This document shows, piece by piece, positions 1,598 to 59,379 of a stretch of 64,000 nucleotides of DNA. A program made the position numbers and the translations under genes. Location: NCBI GenBank assembly GCA_017506865.1, contig JAFCMP010000025.1, forward strand, positions 186,001 through 250,000. Reading direction: 5' to 3'. Below the pieces are notes generated by a model that had not been told where the DNA came from, did not search any database, and saw only the letters and a program-made list of their open reading frames with translations. Position 1 is the stretch's first letter. Every line of letters starts with the position of its first letter. The DNA is from Tribonema minus (Eukaryota > Sar > Xanthophyceae > Tribonematales > Tribonemataceae).

Positions 1598-1651
1598 CGC
1601 GTCTCTCTCCGGCGTAGACTCATCGCTCGCGACGGCCTCCGCCAGGGCGCA
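1598..1651 (-). repeat. echo of ATAD3 3' coding end
   Basis: About 53 bp nearly repeats 1711-1763, which encodes the last residues and stop region of the ATAD3-type protein. The copy lies about 112 bp further downstream of the gene, so the terminal coding end has been tandemly duplicated into the 3' flank. Confidence 0.75.
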
Positions 1652-1701
1652 CCCACAAGTTCAACTTGCAGTAGAGCATGCAAAGTGACGCCCCACGCGC
1701 A

Positions 1702-4700
1702 TCACGACCCGCGCGTCTCTTCCGGCGTAGACTCATCGCTCGCGCCGACCTCCGCCAGGCGCGTCACCTCCGGAGGCGCCCCGCCCCCCCCGCCCCGCCG
1801 TCCCCCCCCTCCCCCTTCCCCCCCACTCGGCGCAGCCCGCGCCGCCGCCGTCGCCGCCGCCGCCGCCGCCGATGCGTACAGCGAGCCGCGCTGCGTGCGC
1901 GCGTACTCGCGCAGCTTCCAGTCGACGACGGCGCGCCACAGCGGCGGCGTCAGTGCGCACGCGTCGGAGCCGTACGCGGCGGCCTGCGCGGCGAGCACGA
2001 GCTTCGCAATGTCGCGGCCGCTGAGGCCGGCGCTGCGGCGCGCGAGGTCGTCCGCGGCGGCGGCGTCGTAGGCCACGGCGGAGGTGTCGATGAGCCCCTG
2101 CGGTGCGATGGAGCAGCAGGGCAGCGACGTTGAGCACGCGCACTTACAAAAACAGTAGCGCCAACTGCAGTGTGCGCTGCAGCGCGCGAGGTCGGCCGCG
2201 GCGGCGCCATCGTCATAGCACATCGCGGCCGTGTTGATGAGCCCCTGCGGTGCGGATGGAAAACAGCGCTGAGCCTGAGTAGGCGCAATTGTAGACTACT
2301 AGTCGTACTATGAACGTGGATCTGCAACCGCTGGTGAAAAGAGCAGCACAAGGCTGCTGGTGGATGGTCAAAGCAGCGGCGATTGCAGTGCGCACTGCGG
2401 CGCGCGAGGTCGTCCGCAGCGGCGGCACCGTAGGCCATGGCGGAGGTGTCGATGAGCCCCTGCGGTGCAATGGAGCAGTGGGCGGCGATGCTGAGTACGC
2501 ACACTTCACAAATAGTAGTGCCAATTGCAACGTGCGCTGCGGCGCGCGAGGTCGTCCGCCGCGGCGACGTCGTAGGCCATGGCGGACGTATCGATGAGCT
2601 CAAGCGGTGCGATTGAGCAGCGGCGGTGATCCTGAGTACCATCTAGTACTGCGTAACAGTATGAGTGGACCAAGTTCCAGAGTACCTAGATCTAGTACTG
2701 CTGCATCAGTATGAGTGGACCAAATTTCGGAATCTTCGACCTTGGTTTGAAGACTCAGACGCATCTCTCAAGCGCAGCAGACCACCGCAAGTTTGGACAA
2801 ACGTTACGCCAGCTACATTTGGGCTTTGCGCAGTGGGTCGCTCGGCCATCAGACAAGTGGATTGCTGTTGAACCGGTCGAAGGCGCAAATGAAATGCGGC
2901 AGGGCAAAGTATGTTTGCCTTGCAGCAGCAAGTGAAAGGATATGTGATGACATGGATGCCTGTGATGCAGTTCAACTTCAAGTGGCCTTAAAGTTCAACG
3001 CTTGTCCTCCGCACTGGCCGTCAGCCCTTGTTGACACGCAAGCCGACGCACGGCGCCAGTGCACGTCGTGTACACAGAGAGCTGAAATGGCAGGGCAGTC
3101 AGTGCCGCGAGACACGCAACACGTACGCATGCAATGTAATCTGGCGCAGCCCGGCTTTGATACGGTATGTATGTCAGCTCGCACCAGCGACACATCCACA
3201 CACGGCCGAAGACACTATGCGGCAAGGCTCTGCTGCGCTGAGCACTGCGGTATCAAAGGGGTCAGTTAGGGCTAGGGTTAGGGTTAGGGCGAGATTTGGG
3301 GTTACTGTTACTGCTGCGCGGTGTGCCTCTCATAGAGCGTGTAGCACACATGCCCCACTTTGGGGGGCGCGCTCGCGTGCAGCTTTCGGTTAGGGTTTAG
3401 GGTTAGGGTTGGGGTTGGGTTAACCCTAACCCTAACCCATGCGACACATGAGTCATCACCTCTGTCTGTCCCATTTGAGAATGGCAGCGTAAGTGCATTT
3501 GCCAGGGCTGCGTGAGGGAGCCCAGTAAGTTGGGCTTAGGGTTAGGGTTAGCCGAACCGTGAGTCCCGTTTTGGGTCCCTACATCTCCACAGCGACGTTG
3601 TCAAGAAACGGCAGTCAGGACGCACCTGTAATGGCGCCCAGAGGCAGTTGTGGAGCCTCTGCAGCGAGCGTGTCAAGCACGGCGCAATAGGCCTATACTA
3701 AGAACATGCTACGCATTCAACGCGCCGCTATATACATGTCACAGTTACAGCGCACTTCTGCAGCAGCGCACAGCGCTGCGCCGAGCGCCGCTTTATCGAG
3801 TGGCGTGCCATGTGCTTCTCGTAAAGCATGACTCACACACAAATATGCACCGCTATGCAACAATCGGAACGCACCTGCGATGGCACCCAGAGCCTCCGCA
3901 GCAGCGAGCCGCGCTGTGTTGAGCGCTGCTGTATCGAGTGGCGCGCAATGTGCGTGTCGTAAAACATGTCGCACACGCATGTTCGCCGCCCATTTACCAG
4001 TAACAATCAGGACCGACCTGCGTTGGCGCCCAGACGCGGCCGCGGACCATCCGCAGCAGCGAGCCGCGCTGTGTTGAGCGCTGCTGTATCGAGTGGCGCG
4101 CGATGTGCGTCTCGTAGAACATGTCACACACACAGGGATACACTGCTATGCAACAGCCAGGACGCACCTGCGATGGCGCCCAAAAGCGCCCACGGAGCCT
4201 CCGCAGCAGCGAGCCGCGCTGCGTTGAGCGCTGCTGAATCGAGCGGCGCGCGATGTACGTGTCGTAGAACATGTCGCACATGCACATATGCACCGCTGTG
4301 TAACAATCAGCACACACCTGCGATGGCGCCCAGAGCCGTTGCAGCAGCGAGCCGCGCTGTGTTGAGCGCTGCTGTATCGAGTGGCGCGCTATGTACGTGT
4401 TGTAAAACATGTCGCACATGCGCCGGCGCTGGGCGCGCTCCGGCAGCGGCAGCTCTATCATATCGTCCACCCTGTTTAGCAGCGGCGTGTGAGCCATGGA
4501 GTCCTTGTTTGAGTAATTGAGTCGTTGGTGGAGTAATGGGGTCATTGCTGAGCATGACTGCGACTAACGTGGCCGAGCATTGTGCTGTGACCATGTCGCT
4601 TGCTCTTTGAGCGGACGTGTTTTGGAAGGATTCGAGAGTACGTGCGGTCACGCCAGCGCGAAATACGGCAATCATCTGACCTGAAGATAGCGATCACAAA

Positions 4701-7700
4701 ACCTTTGCTGCAAAAGCTTTGCTGCCAATGTCAGCCTGATCGAAGCATGGGGAAGGCATGCTGGCTGACATGGAGTACGTGCAGTGCAGACTACGTCGCT
4801 GCATAGCATGTCTACAATGGTAATACACCACACCGCCCGGCCTTCTCCCAGGGGCTTTATGAGTACAAATTCATGCGTACTGATTAATGCGTACTGAACA
4901 TGTCGCATGTATGTCTTCCAATGATGATCACCATACAGCATGCGTAGACCTTGTTCTGCCCCATGCCACGCAAATTGCTTACTGCACCGTTGGCAGTTTG
5001 ATCTGTGCTGGGCACTGCTAAACCTGGTGTCCACTAACCCTACCAATAACCCTAAATTTACATTCCAGTGTGATTCGCTTTGTGAAGCCCTGCAATTGAA
5101 GCTGATTATGGCTAGTTTATTCCATGCTCATCGTTGCGGCAAGGCTTTGGTGGCGAGCGTTCGTAACCCTAACCCTAAACCTGCCGCACGATCACAAACG
5201 CGTCTCCGGCTCAATACCAGCACCTATTACATGGGTGAAGTTGCATCCTCTCTGAGCCATACCGCCACATAAGGCCATGCACGTATAATGCATGCATGTC
5301 CAATGCCCTAATTCATGCTGAGCAAAGCTGACAGCGCGCGATGGGCACCCCCCTGACTTGGCACATGCAGAATTAGGGTTAGAGTTAGGGTTATCCACAA
5401 CGTTGACTTGGCCAGCGCATCAGCAGCACTGCAAGTCGCTGAACCGCAATCGACCAGCTTCTTGCCAGCAACACTTCACGCAGAGAGTACGTAACTGCGG
5501 CACGTACGTTATACTTCAACTCCAGCAGTACGTACAATCACGTGATCATCCAGGCGGAGCACTGTGCTTCCTGGAAACTTCTTGAAGAATACCTCTTGAG
5601 CGATGAGTCCTGAAGCACTATTCCTGAAGTGTCTTGACGCTGTGCATGACCGTTTCGTACACATTGCAGAAGTGCACTTCGACGCGCTTCGAAGCACACG
5701 TATGCAGACTACACATGGCAGTTGCACAGCTGCACGTGCCGCAGCGCTGTCCAGTATCGTCTCCAAGTCGCTCGGTTGGCTCTAACCCTAACCCTAACCC
5801 GAACTCTAATCCACCAAAAGTGTACACCTGCAAAGCACATACATCACTAGTTTTATTACACATACAGACAGACGGTACACATGGCAGTTACGCAGCTACG
5901 GCGTGCCGCAGCGCTGACCTGTCCAGTACGGCCTCCTCTCCAGGCCATACTGCTATACAGTGCACGCATAATGTATGCATATTCAATGCGCGCCCTGATT
6001 CATGCTGAGCAAAGCTGACAGTGCGCGATGGTCACCCCCCAGACTTTGGCAAAGGTTAGGATTAGGGTCACGGTGTTACCTAACCCTAGCCTAGCCCTAG
6101 CCCTCACTGCACAGCTACGCGTGCTGAGCACTGACCTGTCCAGTATGGCCTCCTCCAAGTCGCTCGGGCGGCTCGTCGTGAGCACCAGCATGAAGCGCGC
6201 GCTCGGCTCACTCGTGTGGTACAGCAGCGTGTTCAGGCAGTTGAGCGCTGCCTCTCCCATGCGCAACCGCCGTAACCGCCGGTCCCCCGCGCACGCCTCC
6301 GCCTCGTCGATCACCAGGACCATTCCTCGCGGACAGTTCCTGGCCCAGTCCAGCAGGCGGTGCAGCGCGCTCACGGCGACGTTGCCGAGCGGCGCGAGGT
6401 CTCCTCCGGACATTATCGCAAAGTCCAGGCCGCACAGCTGCGCGAGGCGCCGCGCGATGAGCGTCTTGCCTGCGGGAGGGGGGGGGTAGGTGTGTAGGTG
6501 ACTTAGGGTTAGGGTGAGGGTTAGACAGTCTCGCATGCCTCAGCCCTGGTAGCAAGAGAGCGCGTGGGCAGCGCTGCCATGTCTGTCTGGCGATGAGCGT
6601 CTCGCCTGCGGGCAAGCGACGGCGATGAGAGGGCAATGGGGGTATGTAGGTATATAGGGGACTTAGGGTTAGGGTTAGGACTACGTTATGTACACGTGCC
6701 TCAGCCTCGCTACCAACAGGGCATAGGAGCGCTGCCGTGTCCGCCCGGTGATCAGCGTCTTGCCTGCGGGGCGAGGGGCGGCAATGAGGGGCAAGAGTGG
6801 GTAGGTAGCTGGGGTAGGGGACAGTCTGGCAGGCAGCGATGCGACCGATTCAGCCCTGGAATCTACTCTTGCCTGCGGGTGACAGGAGGCAATGAGGGGC
6901 AGCAGCGGGCTTATTGGGTAGGTCAAGTAGAGGATCGTCTGGCATGCCTCAGCCCCGGTAACACGAGGGTGTGGGTAGCGCCGCCGTGCCTGAAGCCTGC
7001 CAGGTCCGTGCTGCAACTGCCGTCCGTAACTGCCATAACTGCAGCTTCAGTCCGCACGGCTCAGGCGGTCTTCGAAAGCTAGCTCGTATGCTGCATGGGT
7101 TACGCAGTGCTGTTGAAGGTGCCGCCCACCGGGCATAAATGCCAGCACTGTAACTGCCGCAACTGCCCGTAACTGCAGCTTCAGCTGCAACTGCCGTCCA
7201 TAACTGCCATGACCGCAGCTTCAGTCCGCATGGCTCAGGGAGTCTTCGATGCCCAGCTCATATGTAGTGCTGTTAAAGAGGGCTGCACATTGTCAGCAAT
7301 GTAACTGCCGCAACTGCCCGTGACCGCAGTGTCAGTCCGCGCAGCTCTGCGAGCCTTCGGAAACCACCTCTCGAAGCCGTCGAAGGCGCTGCACACTGGC
7401 CAATTGGCGATGTCAGCAGAGCGACGCGCTCTGACATGCCTTCACATGCTTTGAAGAGAGGCGTACTCGGTTCTCTGTTTGCAACAGGTAAAAGTCATAC
7501 ACTGTGCCTGGCAGATACATCAGCAATGCTGCGCGCCCCCTGCCATGCCTTTACATGCTTCAGAGAGTACTCACTGCAAAGTAGCACATGTGGTTCTCTG
7601 TTTGCAACAGGCAGAAACCCATACACAAGCCATACATGCAACCTGTGCCCGGCGGCCCATGCAGCAGCACGTGCCTCAGCGGTGCCCTCCGCCATTGTTC

Positions 7701-10700
7701 ACATGCTTGTGAGAGTACTTCAATGTAGCGCGTTTGGTTCCCTACTTGAAGGCAAGTAGCCATACATGCATACCTGTGCCGGGCGGCGCGTGCAGCAGCA
7801 CGTGCTCTAGAGAGTACTTCAACTGTAATTATCGGTTTGCAAAAGTAAGTATCCATACATGCATACCTGTGCCGGGCGGCCCGTGCAGCAGCACGTGCCG
7901 CAGCGGCGCCCCCCTCTCACGCGCCCCCCTCACCCCCTCCACCACCCCCGCCAGCCTCTCCTCCAGCGCCGCATTCACCACAACCCCCTCAATCCCCCCG
8001 CTGCCGCCGCCGCCGTCACCAAGCGCCGCCGCCGCCCGCCGCCGCCGCTGCCGCCGCCGCCGCCACGCCGCGGCCACAACACCCGGCACCACCCACGACA
8101 GCGCCTCCGCCGCCAGAGACCCCGAGCGCGATGTCTCGCGCACGAGCGCGGGCTTCGCAAAGTGACGCTCCGCAGCTTCCGCCGCGCCGCGCGCCGCCGC
8201 GCGCGCCGCCAGCGCCGCCGCCATGAGCGCCAGCGCCAGCAGCGCGGCGCGCGCGGCGACGGCGGGGTTCTCGAGCAGCGCCGCCGCGGCGCGCGCCGCC
8301 AGCGCGAAGAGCTCCGCGACGACGGCGCGAGCGCGCTCGCGGTCCGCTGCGCCCTGCGTCGGCAGCAGCGGCGCGTGGATGCGAATCAATACGTGGGCTT
8401 TCATGTGACTCTGCGTGGGCTGTAAGTGCGTTGCACAAGGGTCCAGTGATGTACTGCTGCGCTGCTGCGCCCGCTGTGCGGTGCCATCGACAATGAGTTC
8501 CATGACAATGGCGTGCGCGCGAGCACGCGGTCCCCCCGCGCCCTGCGCCGGCGGCAGCGGCGCACGGCGTGTGAACGCGCGTTGAAGCAATGTCACAAAC
8601 CAACCGACCTAGGCAAACGGCGAGGACAGGCTCCTCGCTGCACACAGCCGTTGCGCGCATCATTCAACCCTGCATGCATACCCCACCTGCGCAGCGACGC
8701 GCGCCAGCCCGATCCCCTCGTTCGCGCGCGCCGCCGCAGCGCTCTCCGACGCGTGCGCCGCCGCCGCCGCGCGCCGCACGTCCGCGGCAGCGCGCGCCGC
8801 CGCCGCGTCCGCGCGCGCCGCCGCCGCCAGCGCCGCGCGCTCCGCGCCGCGCCGCGCCGCCTCCATGCGCGCATCGGCGGCGCGCGCGTCGGAGGCCGCG
8901 GCCGCCGCAACTTCAAGTTGAAGTTGGGCACGGCGCGCGGCGACGGCGCGGACGCTGCGCGCCTCTGCAGCGCGTGTGACGTTGCGCGCCGCCTCTGCCG
9001 CCGCCGCCGCGCGCCGCCGGTGCTGCAGCCGCTCGCGCGCTGCCTCCACCTGGTGCGGGCGGCGGCGGTGGATTTAAAGAGTGTGCGATGTGCGCAACAT
9101 CGTGCAGGAGAGATTAGGGGGTGTTGTTTTGGCGACCTTCAACTTGCGGAAGGGAAGCATGCGCATTTTTTTGAGAAATGCCATAGCTAGAATCGCCGCA
9201 AACTGGCACACTACTCAACCTAGATTGATGTTGCCGTAATGCTTCGCCTCTGGGACACACTGGATGACGTGGTGCAGACCTTTCAAGGTTGCAAGCTGCC
9301 TTTTCTGAGTAGAGAGAGCTCACCTTTGGTCCCAACATAATGCTCCAAGAGCCAAAGGTGCATTAGGGTTAGGTTAGGGTTAGGGTTAGGGTTAGGGCTA
9401 AATGGCCTGCCCAGTAGTACTAATCCAAATGCAGCCACTAAACGCGTTCAGGCAGGCCGGTGCGCTCGCGTGCCGGGATGCTGGGGAGCCTTTGTTTGTG
9501 CTTTCAAGTACCTCAAGTATGAGAACAAATCAGATCATAACACAACTGTACGAGCACCGCATCTGCATTATAAAGCACCCTCGTTTGCCAGAACTCTGAA
9601 GCTCAGCGTAAGCACTTGCAGTCAGAGCCAGCTTGTGAACACTCAGAATCAGCATCCGCTGCGCTAGCTACGTGCGCTCCAGTTCAGTATTGCATGATTG
9701 TATCAGACACTTGTTGGCAATTCATTGGCTGTCTGTAATGCGTGTGGTGTGAGCTTTTCTCCACATCAGTCAAATCCTACCTCAACGTGTGACGTGCCTT
9801 CACGAGCACCTCTTGGCTTCACTTGAAGTATTCAACATGGGAGGTGCCGCTGTGAGCATCCCATGCATCTCGTGACCTCATTTGAGCGCTGCCTCAATGT
9901 TGGGCATGCCGTGGCAAGCACGTTATCCACGCACGCGCTGGAGTAGTGCCGCTTCGACACAGGCACAACGTGTGACACACTTTTACGAGCACCACGCATC
10001 GATGTCCGCCTGCTAGCATCATTTAACCGCCAATTCCACGTGATGTCCGCCTGCTAGCATCATTTGAATGCCACTTCAACGTGTGACGCACCTTTGCGAG
10101 CGCCACGGAATGCCCTGCCACTTCAAGTTGTGACGCACCTTTGCGAGCACCACATCCGCCTCGGATGCAGCAACCTGCCACTTCAAGTTGTGACGCACGC
10201 TAGCGAGCACCACATCCCCCTTGGATGAGACCTGCCACTTCAAGTTGTGACGCACCTTTGCGAGCACCACATCCGCCTCGGACGCAGCGACCTGCGCCAC
10301 GAGCTGCAGCTGCGCCGCCGCCTGCCACTCCTTCCCCTGCTCCTCCATCATCGCAATGAGGCGCGTGGTGACGCCGCTCGACTCGTGCTCGAGGTGTGCC
10401 ACCAGCTCCGTCGTATTGCTGCATATGTCATACATACACACACAGCATTCCTGCAGTTGTCAGCCATACATGCACATCGTTTCTGCAGTTGTCATACATA
10501 CACACACATGATTCCCGCAGTTGTCATACATACATACGCATTATCGCGATGAGGCGCGTCGTGACACCGCTCGACTCATGCTCGCGCCGCGCCACCAGCT
10601 CCGTCGCACGCCTGCAGACAATGTATGCACATGCATCATCGCGCGATGAGGCTCATTGTGACACCGCTCTACTCGTATGGTCGAGCTGCGCCACCATCTT

Positions 10701-12257: not shown

Positions 12258-15200
12258 ATGCCTCTGCAGCCCCTGGATCCAGAGGAAGCAGGACGGGAGC
12301 TGCAACACTACCTCACCGCCCTGAACGCACCCAAGCACGTCTCCCGAGAGCGTGCTTTGAAGTCCTTCAAGGCCTTCGTCGAGGTGCAGGGGAACGAGTT
12401 TTATGATGACGACGTTGACACCTGGTTCAGAGGGGATGGGTACATGCACGGGCTGCTGGCGTGGTGTGGCGAGAGCAGCACGGGGACGGAAGGAGGGCTC
12501 AAGCGCACGGCCGCAACAGCCATAAAGACGCTGGGCTGGCTGGTGCACAGGAAGCCAGAGCGTGATGCGGAGGATGAGGAGGTGAGTTATTGCTGTGAGC
12601 ACTGCTGCAGCTGCGCGTTTTCCGCAGACCACTGTCAGTTTGATGCCGGCCTGAGCCTGCGCATCGAGTGCAATGCACAGGCCGCTTGGCTGCAAACTAC
12701 TGTTGGTCTTCGTCCGGCGCTTCAAGGGCAGGTGCGGCAGTAGATGAACCTGTGAAGTAAGCTTGCCAACAACAATGAAAACGTGTACGTGTACTGCTAT
12801 GAAAACGCTACGCGTGTGGCTCCATGCGGACAAGCGTAACATACAAGAGCACGCTACGCAAGTGTTTCCTGGTTGTGTTTCAGTCGAACATCCGGTTTCG
12901 TTTTGTGACAGAGTCATCGCAGAGTGCTAGCTGGGCTCACTCAAGTTTGTCTGCGCAAGGGCTGGCTTTCAGCATCTGCAATATGTGCACACTGAACGTG
13001 CTGCAGCTGCTCACCGCTCACGACGGCTAGCCCCTGGCGGTAGAGCGGTAGGTATTGGGTGATGAAGAGCGTTACGCTGTGCGCAATGCGCCGCTATCAG
13101 ACTCTCCATGTACTTGTTTGAGCATCCTCAGTAAGGCCATGTACTGTGGTGATACGCATGCACCTGAGGGTTACGGTTAGTGTCGGGGGGGGGGGGGGGC
13201 TCACATCCGTCAAGCATGCAAGCCGTTGCGCTTTGACAACGCGAACCGTCGCTGCTGCTGCGGCTTCCGCTGCTGCGATAACGTTGTCTCCGCCGCTCTT
13301 CAGCCGTGGATCCCGTGGGACGCAAACGGGCTGACGCTGAAAGCACAGTCGCGGTGGAGGCTCGGTCACTGTCATCCATGCGAGCAAGGCCAATGCACTT
13401 CAACTAAAGATTATTGAAGTACGGTGTGGTGTCGTGACGCGCCCACGTTTGCCTCTGCCGCCTGCTGCCATGTCACTGCATAACATTTGGCTGGGGCCGC
13501 CTGCTGTGCAATGTACTTCAAATACAGAAACTTGAAGTAGGGGTGGTGTCATCACGCGCCCATGCTCAGCACTGCCGCCTGCTGCCATGGCGCTGCAGAA
13601 CTATTGGCTGGGGCGCCTGCTGTGCATGCAATGCCAGTGTACTTCAACTACTTTGAAGTAAATGAACTTGAAGTAGGGGTGGTGTCTCAGGCACCCGCGT
13701 CACCACGGCCGCTGCTGCCGTGTCTCTGCAGAACATTTGGTTGGGGCGTCTGCTGTGCATGCCGGTGGACATGCTGCAGCAGATGCACCTGGACCTTCAC
13801 ATCCAGTCCAGCAAGAGCATCGGCGGCGAGCGCGGCGGAGACAAGGAGCAGGTATGTATGTATATACTTCACTAAAAAAGAAAGAAGAAGAAGGAAGAAT
13901 ATCGACAAGTAAAGGCAGGTCAGCTGCTCGCTGGCATTCAGCAAAGTTGCAGATTTGCTTTCTGTTGTACTTCAAACAGTATACTTTGAAGTAGTACCTC
14001 AAGAAGAACTAGCAGATCATCTGACCATCAAACAGTATACTTTGAAGTAGTACCTCAAGAAGAACTAGCAGGTCATCTGACCATCAGCACGACAGCAGAG
14101 TTGCAGATCAGCCATAAGCTGTACTTTCAGGAGTGTTGGCAGGTCACCTGGTCATCAGCATAGCTGCAAAGGTTGCACATTAGCTATGCTTTGTACGTCA
14201 AGAAGTGCAACTTGGTCAGCTGGTCATCGGCACAACAGATCAGACATGTATGGTTAGGGTTGGCAAAGTGCGTATATTTGGATTTTACATACCCCTATAT
14301 ATACGTACTTTTTATTAATTCTCGCTCAGGGCGCGAAAAAGCCCAGATGATTGGCATCTAGCTGTAAGGAATCTACATGTCGTATGACAGTCTGAAAGTG
14401 TCGCAACGACAACCACTCAAACGCCGCCGCCGCCAAATGGCATCTCGGGGTCCTCCCCTACGTCCTCCTCCATGTGCCCCCCCCCCCTGGATTCTGCCAT
14501 GTGTGTCATGACACGGCCAGAGTACGCCATGTGGAGCGCTGCCGACAGTGCCGAGCGTAAGCGCGCCAGGGCGATGCCCTTGAGAGCTTTAGGGCGCGCT
14601 CCTCCGGGCACTATATACGTACTTTTGGCGTATAATACGTATATACTGCGTACATTAGCGTATCTGACAAAGCCAAATCTCGCTACGGCGCTTTCCCGTC
14701 TTTGGATTTCTCTGAAACCAGGTGCATTCGAACAGGCTCAGGCTGCTGATTACAGACATGCAGACACTAGAAATAATTGCCTTCATAAAGTGATATCAGA
14801 GCAACACTTGAAGTATGGGATTTTCTTGAAGTTGGCCGAAATGCCAAAAGAAGCTTAATTACGGCCTGAGTGTGCCGACCGCATGGTGCCGCTGAAAAGC
14901 CGCACCTCGCCAGGGGGCAGCCTGTGCTCTGTCAGCATGAGCAGCGACTCCTTCCCTTCGTCCTCTTCCACATCACCGATAGAACAAGCCGTGAAGGCTC
15001 GTGCAGGCTCTGCTGGCGAAGTGCGAAGCTGCCTGAGCCACTGAATTGTCAAGTTCAGGCTGTGCAGGCGCCTTGTGTGGCTTAAGACCACCGCTCAGCC
15101 CTGCCTTTCCGCTTCTGGCCCCAAGATAGCCCTAGCCACCTTACCCTTGGCATGCGCTGGGCCACGGGCGACACTCGTGAGCACCACAGCGGTGCAAAAG

Positions 15201-18200: not shown

Positions 18201-21200
18201 GCGTCACACTAGGCGGCTTTGCAGTTGAAGCGGCGCTAGGCGAGTATTTGCGGATCCTGCAACTGCAGGCGGAGGGTCACTACCCTGCGAAACGTAATTG
18301 AAGCCGGAATTGGCGTGGTTGCATGTTGATAAGCTGCGCTTGAGGAGGGGCGATGCCACTGGTCTATGTAGCAGCCCGCCGCCGCAGGCTCTTCTTAAGG
18401 CTAGAATAAGAATTATGGTTAAGATTAGGGTTAGGGGTCAAAGTTAGTCTTAGGCGCAGTAATACTCGAGCATCAACGCATGTGCCTCCAACGGTTTGCC
18501 TCGGGCGCGCATCCGACTCCACTCTACTCACTGTTACGACTCGACTCGACTTGACTCATCCGCCACTTACGGCCGCCTCGCTGCTGCCGCCGCGGCTCTT
18601 ATTAGGGTTAGGGTTACACTTAGGGTCAGTGTTGCTTTCAGACAGCCCGATGCGTTGCTTCACAAACATCAACGCCTCTGACCTTTAATGTACGCCTCGG
18701 GTGCCTCGTCGCTGCTGCCGCTCTTCGTAGGATTAGGGTTAGGGTCAGGGTCAGTTTCAGGCTGCCCAATTCAGCGCATGCGCCTCCAGTGGTACCTCAA
18801 GCGCGCATCTGACTCTACTCTACTCACTGCCATGACTCGACTCGACTCGACTCATCCGTCACTTACGGCTGCCCCGCTGCTGCCGCCGCGACACAGACGA
18901 CGTGCCCGTGAAGGACCCCCTGGGGCTCAGGTCGGGGGATCTGCGCACTTTTCAAGCTAACCTGTTCCGCCAGAACGACGCCGGCCAATCGTCGTCTTTC
19001 CTGAGGTCGCCTCTGCGCGGCTCACGCGACATGGGGGACGTCAGGGGGGACAAGAAGGGGAAGAATAATCAGGGGTACGTACGCTCTGCATGTGCATAGG
19101 GTATGTAGCGTGCGTATCATATTTCCTGGGGTCGTCTCTGCGTGGCTTGCGCGATATGGGGGACGCCACGGGGGACAAGAAGGGGGAGAGCAACCAGGGG
19201 TATATAGGTATGTGCGCTCTGAACGTGCATAGGGTATGTATCGTTCGTATGGTAGGCGTGTATGCTCTGCGCCTGCGAGGCCGCCGAGACGGCTACCAGG
19301 GACTGTCCTCCTTCATGTGTCGTGCTTCAACCTGTGCGCTCGGCACTGCTGACAATGAGAGCGTGGCGGGGCACTCACTTTAACCCTCACCCCTAACCCT
19401 AACCCTAACCCTAACCCTAACCGACAGTTGTCCCATCTGCAGGCGGCTGGCTCTGTGCGATTGTTACAGTGACATACATGCAGGCAGTGCAAAGGCGACC
19501 ACATGACAACAAGGAGTATTTGCTGTACCTGAAATGCAGGCATGCCTGCAGTTGTGCTGCCATTCCATTGCTTGAAGCACATGGGGGAGAGTCACAACTC
19601 GCTCAGTCGCTATGTGCAAGTGCTTCTGCGCAGCTCATTGCGTGGACACACGAAGGGGAGAACATATGATCATCAGAAGGGGCTGTTGACTGCCTACTTC
19701 AAGCGCTGCGCAGTTGCGCTGTTCGCTCCACCCCTGCGAGGTTGTACACCTGCATCACCTGACAATGTTAACATGACACACAACCCGCAAGTTTGATGCG
19801 GGTCTTCGCAAACACAGAACGCGGACAGTGCGTGGAAGACCAAAGACGCATATCTGGTGTGCCCATCTGCGCTTACCGAAGTCGACTCGACTCAACTGTC
19901 TTTGGAGGTTATTTTATTGCACATGGCACAAAACTTTTCAGGCACAATCAACTGCCCCTGTAGACCATGTGACGCGCCACTGAAGCTTTGTACTCATCAA
20001 TGCACTTCAACAGCATTCGCCCCCCTCAACTTCAAGTTGGAGCGCCCCAAAGCGCGCAACACCTGCCTGACTCGCCTTTGACTCGCCGGCTCTTTCTCAA
20101 CTCGACTTGGACTCTTGAACTCGGGAGCCATGCCTGCGTCCTGCGCCGTCTAACGCTCCACATGCGCATCAAACTTCAACACAAATTTCAACACAACTTT
20201 CCACTGCACCGTGCCGCGCTCATGACAGCACGTCAAACGCGATGTCTCAAGCATCCTGCAGAGTTTCTGGCACTGCGCAGTGTCCACGTCGCTGATACGG
20301 CGGGGGGTACAGGCAGCGGAGCATCGTCAACTGAGTTCAAGTTCAAGTATGGCAGTGGCCAGTCTGCAGCAAACCTCAAGGAGGCTCTCCATTGCGATTG
20401 TCTTATTGTTGCTTGCAGTCTGAGCCGCCTCCGGTGCAGCCGACCGTCACCCTAACCCCAACTTCAAGCCTGCAAACCGCCATAGGTGACGCCCCTTACG
20501 CCCCGCCCACCGCTGCTAACCCTAACCCTTATTCTTAACCCTAACGCAATGCGCGCCCCGCAGGTCCGGCAAGGGCGCTGCCAAGGGCGGCGGCGGCAAG
20601 TGGCGCAAGCGCGCCAAGCCGCGCTCCAAGTCGCGCGTCGCGGGCATGGACGACTCCAACGACGGCGCCGCCGCCGCCGCCGCGGCGTCCCCCAACCCCT
20701 TCGACGCCGCCTTCGACACGCCGCAGCCTGGCGGCAGCGCGGCGCGCGGCGGCAGCATCGGCGGCGGCGGCGGCGGCGCGGCGGGGTTCAGCGGCGCGGA
20801 GAGCGTCGTGCCGACGGACGCGGCGTTCGCGCCGGAGCTGTTCGTCGCGGTCGTGCACGCGGACGCGAGCCTGGCGGACGTGCGCAGCGGCCTCGCGCGC
20901 CTCGACGCGAGCCGCGCGGACCAGGCGGGCCAGCTGCGGCGCCTCGTCCACGACAACTTTGACGCGTACGTGCGCTGCGCGGACCGCATCGAGCAGTACG
21001 CGGCGCAGATCGAGACGGAGCTCGGTGAGTCACGTGCTTTGGTGTCTGTAAGTGAGATTGAAGTGATGTGTGCAAGCAGCCGCGGACCGCATCGAGCAGT
21101 ACGCGGCGCAGATCGAGACGGAGCTCGGTGAGCGTCACTTGTTGAAGTTGAGATTGAAGTTGAAGTTTGTGACATGCGCCTTGTGCACGACAACTTTGAC

Positions 21201-25159: not shown

Positions 25160-25190
<31 letters not shown>

Positions 25191-28302: not shown

Positions 28303-28443
28303 AAAGTGCTTGCACTGACCACAGCCACTGACCACAGCCATCAAGTGAAGCAGAGATATACGCTCTGGGCAAAGTGCTTGCACTGACCACAGCCACTGAA
28401 CACAGCCACTGAGTGCAGCAGCACAGTCCTATACGCTCTGGGG
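28303..28443 (+). repeat. duplicated 5' leader of the methyltransferase gene
   Basis: Units 28303-28369 and 28371-28443 share AAGTGCTTGCACTGACCACA and end in TATACGCTCTGGG. The second unit abuts the start codon at 28445. This is the only 5' gene end in the window with an echo. Confidence 0.85.
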
Positions 28444-28444
28444 C

Positions 28445-31480: not shown

Positions 31481-31514
31481 TTGAACTTCAACTGCCTGCA
31501 GTTGATCTTCAGGA

Positions 31515-31930
31515 GTGACGCTCCTGCGCGCGCTGAGCGCTGTCGTGGACCCCGCGTGAGCCGGACGGCGCGTACCTCACTGACGGCGTCTTCTTCTGCC
31601 CGTAGCAATTGAACTTTGGGGGTGACGCTCCTGTGCGCGCTGAGCGCTGCTGGGGGCCGCGTCGTCAAGCCTGCGCACTGGGAGGGCGCATGCCTCACGG
31701 GGGGCGGCGTCTTCTTCTGCCCGAAGCGCACACATTTGAACTTCAACTTCTAAAGGTGACGCTCCTGCAGATGCTGAGCGCCGTCAGCCCCTTGTAGTAC
31801 CTGGAGGGTGCGTACCTGAAGGGGGGGGGGGGGGTGCTCTTCTGCCCGTAGTGCGCATGCGTTGCGCACACGCACTTGAGGTTGCACTTCGGTAGGAAGT
31901 GACGCTTACGAGCGCTGAGGCTGAGTGCAA
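31515..31930 (+). repeat. tandem echoes of methyltransferase 3' coding end and stop
   Basis: The last ~100 nt of the ORF (GTGACGCTCCTGCGCGCG... TTCTTCTGCCCATAG) recur three times downstream, ending at 31605, 31726 and 31851 (spacing 125, 121, 125 bp). A truncated fourth begins near 31907. Copies 1 and 3 keep the TAG; copy 2 has AAG. Between units sit TTGAACTTCAACT-type palindromes. Confidence 0.95.
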
Positions 31931-33331: not shown

Positions 33332-34178
33332 ATGCTTAAGCTGAGTTCTTCTTCGCTGCGCCACTGGTGTTTTTGTTCGCTGCGCCACTGGCACCGTGGG
33401 TGAGTTTCTCCTCCTGTGCGTGTTTTTTCTCCTGCTGTGGTGCGTGCTCTACCAGAGAGAGCTTCGAAAGTAGCAACCTGGCGACCTGCCTTCTGTAATC
33501 GCTCTTTGCGTCTCATCTGCGTGCAGGCTGGCCAATGGGGCCTCAGCGGCCGTGAAACTCTCGCCAGAGTCAGCTGTGCCTTCGTTCTATGAGCTGAAGG
33601 AGGCTCTTGCTGCGAACGCGAGTACAGTAACTGCCGGTGCCATCATCGTGGCAGGCGTAGCTTACGTAACTGGTAAGCTACACAAAGTTGATGTTTTGGA
33701 AAGCAATTTCAAGGCTGAGAGGGAGCTGAGGGAGGCTGAGAGGAAGCTGAGGGAGAGCCAGATCAAGGCTGCAGCCAGCGACGTGCACGCAAAGCATGGG
33801 GCCTCAGCGGCCGTGAAACTCTCGCCAGAGTCAGCTGTGCCTTCGTTCTATAAGCTGAAGGAGGCTCTTGCTGCGAACGCGAGTACAGTGACTGCCGGTG
33901 CCATCATCGTGGCAGGCTTAGCTTACGTAACTGGTAAGCTACACACAGTTGATGTTTTGGAGAGCAATCTTAAGGCTGAGAGGGAGCTGAGGGAGGCTGA
34001 GAGGAAGCTGAGGGAGAGCCAGATCAAGGCTGCAGCCAGCGACGTGCACGGAAAGCTGCTTGAGAGCCCGCTGAATTTTTTAGCGACTGATGACTACAAG
34101 CCACTTCAAGAGGCTCTGGCCGCCACGCGCCAGCGCACCTCTGAAGGTTCGCCAGATCAGCAGGAGAACAAAAGCTAA
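33332..34178 (+). CDS. duplicated TM + coiled-coil protein, 2 exons, 239 aa
   Basis: Exons 33332-33399 and 33527-34178; the donor GTGG|GTGAGT and acceptor TGCAG fit in phase 2. The first ~23 residues (MLKLSSSSLRHW...) are basic and lack acids, as in a mitochondrial presequence, and contain SLRHW twice. Two 87-residue repeats follow. Each has a segment beginning KLSPESAVPSFY, a hydrophobic helix (VTAGAIIVAGVAYVTG) likely to span a membrane, and a charged coiled coil (AERELREAERKLRESQIKAA). A unique 40-residue hydrophilic tail ends the protein. I do not recognise the family. The helix-plus-coiled-coil layout would suit an organelle inner-membrane protein, but this is inference. Confidence 0.7.
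33537..34055 (+). repeat. 261 bp in-frame coding duplication
   Basis: Unit 1 (33537-33797) and unit 2 (from 33798) differ at only a handful of visible bases, such as GAG/AAG and GTA/TTA codons. The duplication is therefore recent or homogenised, and it preserves frame. Confidence 0.95.
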
Positions 34179-46700: not shown

Positions 46701-46736
46701 GGTATTGAAATAAATACTGCGCACCTGAAGGCGTGC

Positions 46737-46874: not shown

Positions 46875-46905
46875 TCTTGATGATGCTTAATGTCAAGCCA
46901 CACAG

Positions 46906-51637: not shown

Positions 51638-54600
51638 CTACTGGAGCAGTTTCGCGACTTGTCCAGGCGACGCGAGGTTCTTGTACACGTTGCCATGTCC
51701 GGGCTTCCGCGGCGGAGGCAGCCCCAAAGAATCAGCAATAGCCGTCACCGACATGCGCTGAGCACTGACGCCGTCGGCAGCGCCAGCGCCAGCGGCGGCG
51801 GCAGAGGCAGCAGAGGCGGGCGGTTGCCCACCGCCCGGCGCAGCAGCAGCAGCGCCTGCCGCTGGCGCTGACGCGTACGCATGCTTGCGCCGCCGCCGTC
51901 GCCGCCGCACGCACAGCACCAGCGCCGCCGCCGCCGCCAAGACGGCGGCGCCAATGCCTGCGGCGGTCGCGATGCCCACCGTCGTGAGTGCGCCATTCCG
52001 GAAGAAGACTTTGATGATGCCGCCGCCGCCGCTGCCACCGCCGCCGCTGCTTGCGGTGCCGTCAAGCGTCACCGCTGCCGCCGCCGCGGCGCCGCCCCGC
52101 CCGCACATCCCGCTGCAGCGCGCCGCCGCGCCGCCGCAGCACGGCACCGCGGCGTCGCACGCCGCGCCCGTTTCCGCGCACACAGCGGCGGCGGTGGCGC
52201 CGGGGCCCCAGGCGGCGCGGAAGACGCGCGCGCGCACCGCGGCGACCGCGCCGCCGCCGCCGCTGCTGCCGCTGCTGCTGCTGCTGCTGCTGTATGCTGC
52301 CACGAAGGCGCCATCAGCGAGGGCGGCAAGGGCAACGTCTGTCTGATCGCCGGCGCTGTCGGCGTCGCCGTTGATCGCAAACTCGAGCAAAACGCGTTCG
52401 ACAGTGGCGTCGGGCGCGCGTCGGAAGACCTGCGCGCGCCGCGGCAGAGGTCGGCGGGTGAGCGCGACAGGCATTGCATCGGGGTTGGGCATTGCATATC
52501 AGCTGTACAAGTGCGACAATGTACAGATCCAGAGTTTTCTGTATATGTTCACGGTCGGCACTTGTGATACATTTGCTCTTCAACTTCAACTGCACCCCAT
52601 CAACACCTGGATATTTGTGATCTGCCTCGCAAACACGTGCGCTGGAGCTGCGCATGAACACATTCACGGTCATGAAATTCATGAACTGCGACGCGAATCC
52701 GTGTGCAGCTGCCAGGTCCCTGCTGTCAAGTCCAAACGGCAAGTGTGACAGCGCATTGCACATGGCACACTTGCTGCACTGCAGCCCATGTGTATGCATG
52801 TGCACTTGCCATGCTACTTTCCCCTACCCCGGAGCATGCAGTATACACCTACAGCGTGCTGGGCATTGCATAGTACTTCTATGCAGTACTTGACTGCTCA
52901 TAGAAGTAGATCTTAAGTATGCAGTATACGGTCAGAGGTACAGCAATTATGCAACTTTGCAGTACATACCTGCCCATAGATGCCAAATACGCAGTGTACA
53001 TCCAGAACCACAGAGATTGTGCAACGCATATTGCCCATAGATGCCGGCGCTAAGCACTACACGCCTAAATTGTATCATGCGACCCTTCCCCTAACCCGAA
53101 GCACTTCGTTGAAGTATGTAGTATGAAGCTACAGTGTATTATGCAGTACAGACATACCTGCCCATAGATGCCGGCACCATCGCCGTCCTGCCCCCCCAAG
53201 CTCGTCCACGCGATCACAAACGCGCCTTTGTTGTAACTGCCGCTGGCAGCGCTCAGGCTCACAACCGCCGGCGCCATACGCGCCCTCGCCGCCGCCCCGC
53301 TGGTATTCGCCGCGAATGGCCTCCCCTTGAGGCCGCCCGCAGCGGTTACAATCTGCGCATTTAGGGTTAGCGTTAGGGTTCGGATTAGAGTCAGGGTCAG
53401 GGTTAGGGTTAGGGTTAGGGTTAGGGTTGGGGTTGAGGTTAGGGTTCGAGGACGCCCGCAGCAATTACAAACTGCGCGCGCATCGTCAAAGTGGCAGCGC
53501 TCAACAGATGGCAGTGACTGCAGATTTGCCGCAGCGCACTCATTTGACACGCAGCGCCTTCGGCAGCGCCCGCAGTGATTGCGACCTGCGCGCTCGACAC
53601 TAACCCTTCCCTGACCCTAACCCCTAACACTAGCTGCTGCTCGCCGCGAATGGCCTCCCCTCGAGGCCGCCCCCGGCCGTTACAATCTGCACTATAGGGG
53701 TACCATAGGGTTCGGGTTCGGGTTCGGGTTAGGGTTAAGATTAAGGTTGGGGTGAAGGTTTAAGGGACACCCGCGGCAGTTCCGGTATGCGCACGGGTTG
53801 CCACAGCGGCAGCGCTCAGCAGATGGTGTGGTGTTGAGCACTGAGTTGCGGCAGCGCACCGAGTTTTACGCACGGCGCCCTCGGGAGCGCCCGCAGCGGT
53901 GATGGCTTGCGCGCTCGTGATAGACCTCAGGTGCTGAAAAGCTTGCACACAGAAGTCTTTGGGCTCCTGTGGATATATGTGGTGGCACTGCTGGACTCGT
54001 GGCCAGTTGCCGCAGCAGCGGCGACCACGATTATTGGTGGAAGCATTTGCGGCTAACCACACCTTGTCACCTACATGGAGTATGATCTTTTGATTCGTTT
54101 CCATGACGCTTTTGTCACACCTGTCACCTAGAGCTCTACGATATTTTGATTCGTTCCCATAAACCCTATCCCTAACCTCAACCCTACCCCTAACCCTGAC
54201 CTCAACCTTGACCTTACATTCCAACCCCGTGACTCTAAACAAGCAGCGGCGTCAGCAGATGGTAGTGAGCACTGACACGCAGGCGCACACTGCCACCATC
54301 GGGTGTGCTGTGGCAGCGATGAAAGTGCGCATGCGTGATCGCGCTAGCAGCAGCGCTCAGCAAATGGCGGCGACGAGCACTCACCCGCAGGCGCTTACTG
54401 CCACCGTCGGTGAAACGCAGGCGCACGCAGCCACCGTCGAGTGTGCTGAGGCAGCGACGATTCGAGTATGCATGAGCGCACCAGCAGCAGCGCTCAGCAA
54501 ATGGTGGTGAGCACTGACGTGGAGCTGTGACATGCTGCCCGCGATAGCGCGCGCGCAGAGCTGCGATGGTTTGCGCGCTCGTGTGATGAGCTTAGGGTTA

Positions 54601-56303: not shown

Positions 56304-57584
56304 GCCAGCTGTCTATCAAACTATATTAGTTCGACGCCTGAGCGCGAGCTGATGAGAAACGGCCCTTGAGGGACTCTGTGAAATGTATGAGCCGGATCGC
56401 ACCCCACCTCCCTTTAGCGGTTACGAAGTAACGGTTTTGTGGTTGGCTGCTGCTGGCTGCCCTCTGACAGGTGATGATGTTTGGCCTAGTGTCTGAGGAG
56501 AGGCGCTACCTTTTCGACGCTTACAGAGCGCAAGGTTCCTGCTGCATCTTCTGGGTTATTTGTCGATGCCCTTAAGTACTGTGACTGGCATGTGCAACTT
56601 CAACTATGGCAGTGCGCCCTTGGCGACTGCGACTACTTATCAAGACCATGAAGGTGCCATTCCCTGTGAGTGCAAAGCAATGAAGCAAATACGTCAATGC
56701 AGCGGGCACAATTTCATGCACAATCTCTTTTCGGTGTAATCTCAGAGCCATGGCAGTCTAGTGGAATGGTGAGCTGGAGTGTGCGCCACTGGGCAGATGC
56801 CGTACTTAACGCTGACAGCTTGCCAATGGCTACCTAAACTTGGAAAATTTCATGTCAAGCGTACAATTGCGCGTTGCTGCCGACGCACAAGCACAAGCCA
56901 ATGGCAGGCAGACACTAAAAAAGGGACATGATTGTAGCAAGCGAAATGCACTCAACATCCAAATTACACAGATTTCGGTATGCACACACCACTCAAATGA
57001 AGAAATGCACAGGGGGCGGGCTAAGGAGCGGGCTGCGCTTTCAATGGACCTTTGGAACTCGGAACAAACTGCAATGGCCGGTAGCCTCCGAGAGCCTCGT
57101 ACTATGCTCTGCCACGATGCTACCACTGCTGTACAGTGACTGCTGACCCACACTGGCTGGTGGCGTCTACATTATCAAACGACTTCTGCACTGCTGCATG
57201 GCAGCAGACTCTTGTTTGCAAAGGGTAGCTGTGCAATCTCAGGCTGGAGCACTGCGATGCGATGTGGATGACGCAGGCAGCTGGGAAGAGGGCCAGCATC
57301 GCAAATCAGGTACTGGTATCCAAACTGCTGCCATGGGTACTGCCCCCAGTCAGCCACGCAATACTTGGTAACCAAGCCACAATTGACAATTGCGTGCATG
57401 ACAGGGGGTCCATTCGCAAGCAAAGTGCCACACAAAAGCCTACTTCTATCACCTAGTGGAAGTGTGGAGATGCCGGTGGTGCGCTGCCCGTAATCAGTGC
57501 CAGAACCCTCAGACAGAGAGCTATCTGGTGCCTTCTATCAGACAATTGTTAACAATTTCACTGCTGGCAGCGCATCCTTGAACT
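56304..57584. other. intergenic, no supported gene
   Basis: This holds the promoter of the repeat membrane protein (right side of its start at 56303) and the 3' flank of the EGF-like gene. No domain-bearing frame was found. Confidence 0.5.
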
Positions 57585-59379
57585 TCACGCCACATGGCCT
57601 GCAGGCGAGGCAGTGGGGGCGGCGCTCGGCGAAGCAGATGGCGCAGCCGTGTCGCTGGTTGTGCTGGTGCCAGTGGTCGTGCCCCACATGCTGCTGGGAC
57701 ACCAGCTGCACGTGAGGCTCGAATAGAACGCGGGGCCGAGTTTGTGGATTTTGTGCGCGCAGCGCGGCGGTCTCCAGCCCTTGTGGCACTCACACTCATA
57801 GACTCCTTCATCAGCAGTTGCGGCAGTGGGGTGGGGTTTCCACGTGCAGGCTCCATGCCCGCTGCACCCCTGCACGTCACTCTGCCTGTTGAAGCACGCG
57901 GCGGCGTCGCAGTAGATGCCGTGGAAGCCCTCGGCGCAGGCGCACTTGCCACTGTCAGGGTTCCCCTTGCCCGCAGGCATGTAGTTGATACCGTTGTAGT
58001 AGGCGGGGTCGTAGTGGCCGTGAACCACGGGGCCAGGGTCATCACCAGTGCCTGCAGTCATAACCAAGTTTAGCACACAAGACATATTGGAGCAGAATCA
58101 TCATGAAAGAACCCTTAAGGCAGCAACAATTGCCCTGGTGGCCACCTGCGCTGCGCAGCTTCAGCAAGCTCATGGTTGAACAGCAAGTCTACTCGCGCTA
58201 AAGTTTGCTGGAGGCACCGGTGGATGCGGCAGCTGACGGCTGATGAGTGCGAGCGTCGTGCCCAGCGCTGCGGGATTGGCAATCTGACGTCATATGCAAA
58301 CACGCCGCTGTAGCGGTCTGCGCTCGCTCATCTTCAAGTTGCCACTTACTTGGCATCATGGTTTCCATGCATCTTAATGTGTGACACTGTCTGCCGGCCT
58401 CAATGCCTACACTGACCGCACAGTTGTGCATGCAAATTTCACTGTTGAAGGACCTGCCTCTGCCCCGCTGTTCACACAAAATATCGTGCAGATTCTCACT
58501 GACAGTGTTCTGCCACGTACCCTGACAAATGTCATCTGTCAAACGCTGTTCAAACAAAACATTGTGCATGCAGGTTCTCACTATTCTGCAACACGTACCC
58601 TGACAAATGTCATCCGTGCAAGCCTTATCGCACTGTGTCCAGGTGTCGCCGTACTGGTCGCCGTACGCCATGCACCTCTCGTCGGGGGCGCAGCAGACAA
58701 CGTCAGAGTCCAGGCTTTCGTAGGCGCTGACGCTGAGGCCGCTGCTGGTTGAAGGTGGATGCTGGGAGTTGTTCTCGTGGCCACATGGGTCTTGGCCCTG
58801 AGGGCAGGTGAGATCTTTGGGGAAGAGGATGCAAGGGGGTTCGCCGCCGTCGTCACTGCAGTAGATCCCTGAGCCACTGCTTGGAGACAATGCGCGCACG
58901 CAGACAGCAGCTGCTGGTGTGAGCCGTGTGTGGATCCAGCACGCCAGGCGATCGCGCTCATCCGATGAGCCCTTGAGCCGACACTTGAGTGAGGGAAAGG
59001 TTGGGGGGCAATCCATATGCACCTGGCATGATCTTGATTGTGCAGGGACAGCAGTTGGCAGAGCGGGGTAGCGCAAAGCTCCTCAAGAGACGTCAGGCGC
59101 CTGATGCGTAAACACTGCAGTGGGGCATCAATTGGATGTGTGCATCCGAGAGTCTGCATGAGAGTGACAGCATATCATCACGATGTCGAGTATTCAATTG
59201 TACCCCCTATAGACTTGCGATCACTGACAGCACGCCATTTGCAAGCGACCATTGGCACCACTCACAGGATTTCCGCCCCACAACAGCTGGCCTTCAAGTT
59301 GATGAACTCCGGATGGGAGGGATTCGGGTCTCGGCAGACGTTTGCTGACGACATGCTTGATATGCCACAGACCAGGCAC
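57585..59379 (-). CDS. EGF-like, Cys-rich extracellular protein (5' end not resolved)
   Basis: Three exons fit in frame: 59379-59266, 59032-58599 and 58051-57585. The first begins in phase, so at least one upstream exon is missing from the model. Exon A has a CRCLVCG...CRDPNPSHPEF Cys cluster. Exon B has CQVHMDCPPTFPSLKC, GIYCSDDGGEPPC, VVCCAPDERC and CDKACTDDICQG. Exon C has KCACAEGFHGIYC and CSGHGAC...YECECHKGWRPPRC, a clear EGF-like module, then a Ser/Thr/Ala-rich tail. Cys spacing indicates a secreted or surface disulfide-rich protein. No membrane helix is visible in this part. The acceptor of exon B (TCAAG) is the weakest join. An alternative +1 frame at the 3' end (HGCAICFAERRPHCLAC) is possible but would need another splice. 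Confidence 0.65.
58500..58545 (-). repeat. echo of EGF-like gene donor
   Basis: CCACGTACCCTGACAAATGT repeats the exon end at 58592-58611 (CACGTACCCTGACAAATGTC, encoding DDICQG with its donor) about 80 bp into the intron. TTCACACAAAATATCGTGCA and TTCAAACAAAACATTGTGCA also pair up beside the two copies. Confidence 0.85.

What the first reader, a model, noticed from the sequence alone, without database searches (positions are those of the whole stretch)
1598..58545. Exon-edge 'echo' arrays: tandem partial copies of exon borders across many genes
In five spliced genes here (ATAD3, Sec5, methyltransferase, NAPE-PLD, repeat membrane protein) and probably a sixth (EGF-like), exon borders are accompanied by one to five diverged copies. 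Each copy contains 20-100 nt of exon edge, its splice site and adjoining intron. Donor echoes lie downstream of the exon and acceptor echoes upstream, so introns consist largely of copies of their own borders. Most keep the GT or AG. Spacing is commonly 100-175 bp, often near 140-150. The copies are diverged, so they are not an assembly artefact. I know of no named feature class for this; tandem exon duplication normally copies whole exons. Inference: repeated local duplication at exon/intron borders drives intron growth and supplies alternative splice sites.
Basis: seen in the sequence. Interest (0 to 1): 0.92.

Follow-up and report, generated by a model that had tools for sequence, protein, structure and literature searches.

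The report
Decaying copies of exon edges
In the genome of an unnamed alga, short stretches of DNA are often duplicated next to themselves, so that many introns carry one to five decaying copies of the edge of their own exon, splice site included; the copies look like mostly neutral leftovers, but many of them are strong decoy splice sites.

Summary
In 30 homology-defined introns, 16 of 60 borders have local direct copies of exon edge, splice site and intron (33 copies); GT/AG is intact in 30 of 32 readable copies. Direct copies mark 24-27% of 60-nt windows, reversed and inverted controls under 1%. In 22 coordinate-chosen loci, 23 of 59 duplicate families touch a coding edge, 9.6 expected by random placement.

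Best reading: frequent small tandem duplication (median spacing 144 nt), tolerated where the outermost splice site still works, then decaying about neutrally. Differences by codon position are 0.066/0.065/0.139, as expected if only the true exon is constrained; against this, 0 stops were seen where 3.4 were expected (P=0.03).

It is not splice-specific: a CDS end, intron interiors and DNA without coding calls are copied too. In the samples border copies exceed uniform expectation 1.4-2.4 fold; better detectability may explain part or all. The window shows no clear excess. Introns are not 'largely' border copies (12.5%). The organism was not identified; no RNA or relatives were available.

The parts
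7629..7914 (-). ATAD3 intron 2: donor border at 7866/7867 (exon ...GPPGTG|GTATGC) with an echo 224 nt downstream (7629-7690) and a related copy at 7754-7805
   Evidence: pairs of 90-96%; junction; exon 43/48, intron 13/13
5705..6155 (-). ATAD3 intron 3: donor border at about 6135/6136 with echoes 217 and 392 nt downstream
3757..4421 (-). ATAD3 intron 4: donor border at about 4317/4318; tandem units of about 150 nt holding exon edge, donor and intron (echoes at +138, +300, +443 nt)
   Evidence: (3886-4418, period 150, 3.6 copies, 80% matches)
2000..2639 (-). ATAD3 intron 4: acceptor border at 2097/2098 (CGCACCGCAG|GGGCTC) with echoes 148, 360 and 504 nt upstream; the last has lost its AG
8300..8570 (-). 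ATAD3 intron 1: acceptor at about 8353 with one echo 189 nt upstream
20928..21411 (+). Exon 20568-21023 (assigned to Sec5 by inference): 3' edge with donor echoes (21081-21301, 21342-21411); best pair 95 nt at 96.8%
   Evidence: Sec5 match lies in the ORF at 22508-23833
29632..30128 (+). Methyltransferase intron 1: acceptor at 30077/30078 (CCCGCAG|GGCTTC) with echoes 140 and 427 nt upstream
30310..30748 (+). Methyltransferase intron 2: donor at 30371/30372 (CCCAAG|GTGCGA) with echoes 164 and 336 nt downstream
30770..31209 (+). Methyltransferase intron 2: acceptor at 31195/31196 (GCGCAG|CTCGCC) with echoes 153 and 281 nt upstream
31378..31785 (+). Methyltransferase CDS 3' end, stop codon included, with diverged copies about 124 and 243 nt downstream: an echo with no splice site
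38883..39125 (-). NAPE-PLD-like gene: acceptor at 38959/38960 (CTACACAG|GGCCGG) with an echo at 39047-39125 (86%)
13391..13762 (.). Array (117-118-nt period) that touches no coding call
53299..53917 (.). Direct copies at about 315-334 nt that touch no coding call
33535..34056 (+). Exact head-to-tail 261-nt (87-codon) duplication, 97% identical, inside an open frame (33474-34175)

Best explanation
The echoes are the visible trace of frequent small local tandem duplications (adjacent copies a median of 144 nt apart, 106 of 136 spacings below 220 nt). A unit inside an exon usually damages the protein and is lost. A unit inside an intron is harmless. A unit that straddles an exon edge is also nearly harmless, because the outermost copy still carries the intact exon edge and a working splice site while every further copy becomes intron. 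Repeated events build arrays and lengthen the intron; substitutions and frame-breaking indels erode the copies. Shown here: the copies, their direct and local character, their position on the intron side, a pattern of change close to neutral, and the association with longer introns. Inferred: that the exon-proximal site is the one spliced (from protein homology only), and the molecular cause, most likely repair of staggered breaks with fill-in, or replication slippage; some of the youngest copies are exact head-to-tail tandems.
For: Direct 23.6% vs reversed 0.55% and inverted 0.27% of 3295 windows. Echoes at 16 of 60 gold borders, 33 copies; none outside the intron when 1.6 kb on both sides was searched. 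True-vs-echo divergence 0.090 in the exon part (1648 bases) and 0.170 in the intron part (1343 bases), ratio 0.53, as expected if only the echo drifts in the exon part and both copies drift in the intron part. Codon positions 36/549, 36/552, 76/547: 1 and 2 equal, 3 doubled; 10 of 13 exon-part gaps are not multiples of three. GT/AG intact in 30 of 32, in line with the 0.874 expected from drift at 0.065 per base (P=0.42). Same process away from splice sites: CDS end, intron-only families 14 of 37, no-coding families 33 of 59 in samples. Introns with echoes longer, P=0.0024. Young pairs that are exact or near-exact tandems: core/spacing 98/98, 185/183, 112/118, 261/261 nt.
Against: A uniform neutral simulation under-predicts border families: border to intron-only 0.42-0.82 in five settings, observed 23:14 over 30 introns, 15:7 in CCT genes, 8:7 in the window genes. 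Window coverage at borders is 0.31-0.38 observed, 0.08-0.24 simulated with border copies fully tolerated. In samples the near-gene excess persists at detectability factors 1.6 and 2.0 (P=0.004, 0.019), not at 3.0 (P=0.15). No changed codon of the echoes is a stop (0 of 125) where uniform drift expects 3.4 in 529 codons (P=0.03); biased mutation or weak constraint could explain it. Several 94-98% pairs share a core of only 0.3-0.6 of their spacing, so not all are clean tandems. Echoes are clumped by gene (C135+C5 8 of 22 borders, C279+C235 0 of 24 by the strict test; 12 of 22 and 2 of 24 by the loose test); the P of 0.0012 rests on a grouping made after seeing the result. Echo-echo pairs keep the exon-derived part better than the intron-derived part (0.866 vs 0.768); repeated copying off the true exon could give this but was not modelled.
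Confidence: 0.68

Rival explanations
1. Border-targeted duplication: some process linked to exon edges (exon sequence, chromatin, or transcription/splicing intermediates) makes duplications start at exon borders more often than elsewhere.
For: Border families 23 vs 9.6 expected by random shift in 22 coordinate-chosen loci; near genes 23 vs 15.4-17.0; border to intron-only 15:7 in CCT genes vs 0.42-0.82 simulated; in samples coverage peaks at the coding edge (0.165) and is about 0.10-0.12 from 40 to 400 nt out.
Against: No clear excess in the window (10 vs 6.7 by shifting, 10 vs 8.5-11.6 near genes) and no edge peak there; copies with a conserved exon partner stay recognisable longer, which inflates border counts; a CDS 3' end and no-coding DNA are duplicated too.
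Confidence: 0.2
2. Functional echoes: the copies are kept because they act as alternative splice sites, decoys or regulatory elements.
For: 21 of 32 echo sites score above the 95th percentile of random intronic GT/AG and 11 of 32 at least as high as the true site; GT/AG intact in 30 of 32; 0 stops where 3.4 are expected.
Against: Equal change at codon positions 1 and 2 and only a doubling at position 3; site retention no higher than drift predicts, P=0.42; 10 of 13 exon-part gaps break the frame.
Confidence: 0.07
3. Intron birth by tandem genomic duplication: these introns were themselves created when an exon segment was duplicated, and the echoes are relics of that birth.
For: The published model makes introns out of duplicated exon edges (PMC3443670, passages; PMC4974935, abstract).
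Against: Echoes repeat one border with its adjoining intron, donor copies after the donor and acceptor copies before the acceptor; birth from an exonic duplication would put the copy of the downstream exon edge next to the donor and the reverse. Age of the introns was not tested.
Confidence: 0.03
4. Introner or other mobile element bearing exon edges.
For: One echo unit of the methyltransferase (30852-30999) has an inverted 85% copy 6 kb away in the NAPE-PLD intron.
Against: A 439-nt stretch with the methyltransferase donor and its echoes finds only itself in the 158-Mb genome (a search that skips very common words); the arrays read consist of their own gene's sequence.
Confidence: 0.02

Closest known systems
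[quoted passage not shown]
   Same: A tandem duplication crosses an intron-exon boundary, so that splice signals and exon edge are copied and part of the duplicate becomes intron.
   Different: There one event made a new intron; here several genes carry arrays of up to five copies inside an intron, and copies range from near-identical to strongly diverged.
Tandem genomic duplication model of intron gain (review PMC3443670, passages seen); Drosophila cases (PMC2891723, abstract and outline seen)
   Same: Local duplication supplies new GT and AG sites.
   Different: The model duplicates an AGGT-containing exonic segment and yields a new intron between copies; here the copies sit within introns and no new intron was demonstrated.
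Small tandem duplications from fill-in at breaks by CST-guided Pol alpha-primase (PMC8355091, abstract and outline seen)
   Same: Produces small tandem duplications, the kind of event inferred here.
   Different: Shown at induced breaks in cultured human and mouse cells; nothing here tests the enzyme or the break.
Minisatellites
   Same: Some arrays behave as one, e.g. 150-nt period, 3.6 copies at 3886-4418.
   Different: Most families have two copies (62 of 97), often strongly diverged, and some include exon sequence.

Membership tests
Local tandem duplication (neutral) | Copies direct and local | tested here: met
   Direct vs inverted 0.236 vs 0.0027 of 3295 windows; median spacing 144 nt, n=136
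Local tandem duplication (neutral) | Copies head-to-tail without spacer | tested here: inconclusive
   Several young pairs exact or near-exact tandems, but for the 26 pairs of at least 93% identity the median core/spacing is 0.56
Local tandem duplication (neutral) | Copies drift without constraint | tested here: met
   0.066/0.065/0.139 by codon position; 10 of 13 exon-part gaps frame-breaking. Against: 0 stops, 3.4 expected, P=0.03
Tandem genomic duplication intron gain | New intron created between the two copies | not testable with these tools
   No relatives of this genome are held
Tandem genomic duplication intron gain | Duplicated segment carries usable-looking GT or AG | tested here: met
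   30 of 32
Tandem exon duplication | Whole exon copied with both splice sites | tested here: not met
   29 of 33 border echoes end within 100 nt of the border on the exon side (median 48 nt); 4 reach the 100-nt limit of the probe and are not bounded. Whole-segment repeats exist elsewhere (L009)
Introners | Same element in many unrelated introns genome-wide | tested here: not met
   One unit (439 nt) searched: only itself found in the own genome; other units not searched
Functional alternative splice sites | Conservation beyond drift | tested here: not met
   GT/AG retention P=0.42; codon pattern; the lack of stops (P=0.03) points weakly the other way
Functional alternative splice sites | Use in RNA | not testable with these tools
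   no transcript data

The most novel reading that the evidence does not exclude
Duplication is aimed at, or starts preferentially from, exon/intron borders in this lineage, so that introns grow outward from their own edges and genes keep regenerating near-perfect decoy splice sites, forcing the spliceosome to rely on something other than local site strength.
Probability: 0.2. Interest if true: 0.85.

Novelty: new variant of a known kind. Interest (0 to 1): 0.6.

Why it matters
Border-crossing duplications are reported as single cases in the papers seen; here 16 of 60 tested borders carry them. One genome could then test two things: how introns lengthen by local duplication, and how splicing picks the right site when up to five similar sites, 11 of 32 of them scoring at least as high as the real one, lie within several hundred bases. 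Because exon copy and echo start identical and only one is under clear selection, each pair is also a natural neutral clock for coding sequence.

Tried and rejected
An ab initio gene finder (codon usage plus splice matrices) over-predicted and after tuning recovered 3 of 21 known junctions; it was dropped, and codon-score segments were kept as approximate coding calls. Echo-echo divergence was first expected to be equal in exon-derived and intron-derived parts; it is not (0.134 vs 0.232). Interstitial TTAGGG tracts as source of the duplications: 2 of 33 clusters lie in duplicate copies, no more than the 8.6% coverage predicts. Organism: light-harvesting proteins gave no clear lineage in the PDB search; an rRNA search did not complete twice and was not repeated. 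Comparison with other eukaryotes was not possible (no relatives held). Papers: searches; among the listed titles and abstract beginnings I saw no description of arrays of exon-edge copies, but the library lacks most subscription journals.

Limits of the data. The stretches (20; 2) were chosen by coordinate without having seen them; one (L004) is on the window's own contig and the two are on contigs known to be long. The four CCT genes in the counts (4 of 10 loci) were fetched after the HMM table had shown echo-like matches in C135 and C5, so they are not blind; C51 was fetched because of its echo and is in no count. Gold introns: 23 CCT + 7 window; one stretch of C5 (between HMM positions 70 and 155) was not modelled, two junctions were set by hand (C135, C5) and two have imperfect profile spacing (C135 187/193, C279 441/447). 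One C135 acceptor was 3 nt off and corrected from then on. One search covered only the intron for echoes; one search searched both sides. Low-complexity pairs were filtered; 5 of its 97 families had merged into a single interval. The kinesin table (132 matches) was read by eye.
Full report
WHAT THE GENOME IS. The window is contig C25:186001-250000 of a 158-Mb, 554-contig assembly. It has four U2 snRNA matches, 92 light-harvesting protein matches and two short rbcL-like fragments with a stop each that by eye, from memory, look like the red-lineage form. I take it to be an alga with a red-derived plastid; the lineage was not resolved.

THE OBSERVATION. Self-comparison of the window gives 68 pairs at E<=1e-4, most of them direct and within 700 nt. 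To test borders I needed exact exon ends. Seven introns (ATAD3, methyltransferase, NAPE-PLD-like) were placed in the window by homology, reading frame and GT/AG, and 23 introns in four CCT chaperonin genes on other contigs by profile coordinates. In and around these 30 introns, 60-nt windows have a direct copy within 1 kb in 23.6% of 3295 cases at score>=44, against 0.55% for the reversed and 0.27% for the inverted neighbourhood. With a strict border test (alignment reaching at least 10 nt to each side), 16 of 60 borders have 33 echoes; 8 of 46 for the CCT genes alone, which were not chosen blind. With a looser window test it is 12 of 30 donors and 10 of 30 acceptors, reversed null 0 of 60. 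When 1.6 kb on both sides was searched, all 33 border-spanning copies lay in the intron. Independent sign at protein-profile level: in the TCP1 search 3 of 10 loci show repeated partial exons sharing one edge (C51, C5, C135), and by eye two kinesin loci do (C511, C246).

NOT ONLY BORDERS. In 22 stretches picked by coordinate (220 kb), 59 duplicate families were found: 23 touch a coding edge with a copy outside it, 33 touch no coding call, 3 are coding only; random shifting within each stretch expects 9.6, 46.2 and 3.2. In the window it is 10, 25 and 3 of 38 against 6.7, 26.0 and 5.3. Coverage by copies in the samples is 0.051 deep in coding calls, 0.165 in their last 40 nt, 0.144 in the next 40 nt outside, about 0.10-0.12 from 40 to 400 nt, 0.08-0.09 to 480 nt and 0.047-0.049 beyond; in the window it is 0.00, 0.23, 0.23, 0.17-0.29 (40-440 nt) and 0.08-0.10 (beyond 480 nt), so no peak at the edge there. 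The methyltransferase CDS end, stop codon included, is copied beyond the gene (31378-31785): an echo with no splice site.

NEAR-NEUTRAL DECAY. If the true exon edge is constrained and the echo is free, the exon part should differ by one unit of drift and the intron part by two; observed 0.090 and 0.170 over 1648 and 1343 bases. Within the exon part, codon positions 1 and 2 should show only the echo's drift and position 3 also the synonymous drift of the true exon; observed 0.066, 0.065 and 0.139. Of 13 gaps in exon parts 10 break the frame. GT/AG survives in 30 of 32 echoes, in line with drift at 0.065 per base (expected 0.874, P=0.42). One result points weakly the other way: none of 125 changed codons is a stop, where uniform drift expects 3.4 (P=0.03). 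The copies are strong decoys all the same: 11 of 16 donor and 10 of 16 acceptor echoes exceed the 95th percentile of random intronic sites, and 11 of 32 match or exceed the true site.

HOW MUCH BORDER EXCESS. Simulated uniform tandem duplication with constrained exons, free echoes, indels and deletions predicts border to intron-only families of 0.42-0.82 in five settings; observed 23:14 (all 30 introns), 15:7 (23 CCT introns), 8:7 (window introns). A first simulation with border copies fully tolerated gave border coverage of 0.08-0.24 at intron-interior coverage of 0.24-0.40, against 0.31-0.38 observed at interior coverage 0.26. Restricting the permutation to near-gene positions and weighting for the longer visibility of exon-partnered copies, the samples give 23 border families against 15.4 (w=1.6, P=0.004), 17.0 (w=2, P=0.019) or 19.8 (w=3, P=0.15); the window gives 10 against 8.5 (w=1) to 13.4 (w=3); both together 33 against 26.0-28.6 at w=1.6-2 (P=0.03-0.12). 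I read this as a modest excess that better detectability may or may not fully explain.

INTRON GROWTH AND CLUMPING. Introns with border echoes are longer (12, mean 1184 nt) than those without (18, mean 600 nt; P=0.0024), though longer introns also offer more room for copies; border echoes make up 12.5% of the 24,995 intron bases, up to 58% in one intron. Echoes are clumped: 8 of 22 borders in C135 and C5, 0 of 24 in C279 and C235 by the strict test, 12 of 22 and 2 of 24 by the loose one. The P of 0.0012 rests on a grouping made after seeing the result.

MECHANISM. Adjacent copies are a median of 144 nt apart (n=136). Among the youngest pairs several are exact or near-exact head-to-tail tandems (98, 183, 118 and 261 nt spacing); others share only part of the unit, and over the 26 pairs of at least 93% identity the median core/spacing is 0.56. 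Tandem duplication followed by erosion is the simplest account. Break repair with fill-in is one known route to such events (PMC8355091, abstract); it is inferred here. A published potato case shows that a tandem duplication can cross an intron-exon boundary (PMC4974935, abstract).

VERDICT. The most likely reading is local tandem duplication, close to neutral, made visible at exon edges by the constancy of the exon copy; border targeting remains open.

Noticed in passing
window, e.g. 3277, 3396-3423, 6502, 6662, 9373-9385, 19390-19408, 53402-53414; also L005, L010, L017, L018, L020: Interstitial TTAGGGTTAGGG tracts: 33 clusters (57 hits, 27 in the window) in 284 kb, 0 in one first-order Markov draw. 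They are not concentrated in the duplicate copies (2 of 33).
   Followed up: partly
30852-30999 (+) and 36731-36873 (inverted): An acceptor-echo unit of the methyltransferase (reads ..AQLAPNK..) has an inverted 85% copy 6 kb away inside the NAPE-PLD-like intron.
   Followed up: partly
14496-14611 and 61081-61195: A second distant inverted pair, 79% identical.
   Followed up: no
33474-34175: In-frame exact tandem duplication of 261 nt (87 codons, 97%) inside an open frame, possibly the coding counterpart of the same process.
   Followed up: no
L009 (C5:250001-260000) 6055-7861: Repeated coding segments in a row, resembling tandem exon duplication.
   Followed up: no
L035, L038 versus L036, L037: Echoes are clumped by gene: two CCT genes have many, two have none or few depending on the test.
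   Followed up: partly
about 20660-29260: Long GGC/GCC runs in coding frames (poly-Gly/Ala) in the Sec5 and methyltransferase region.
   Followed up: no
C334:714136-714324 and C112:516888-517037: Two rbcL-like fragments, each with an in-frame stop, on large contigs; perhaps plastid DNA insertions.
   Followed up: partly
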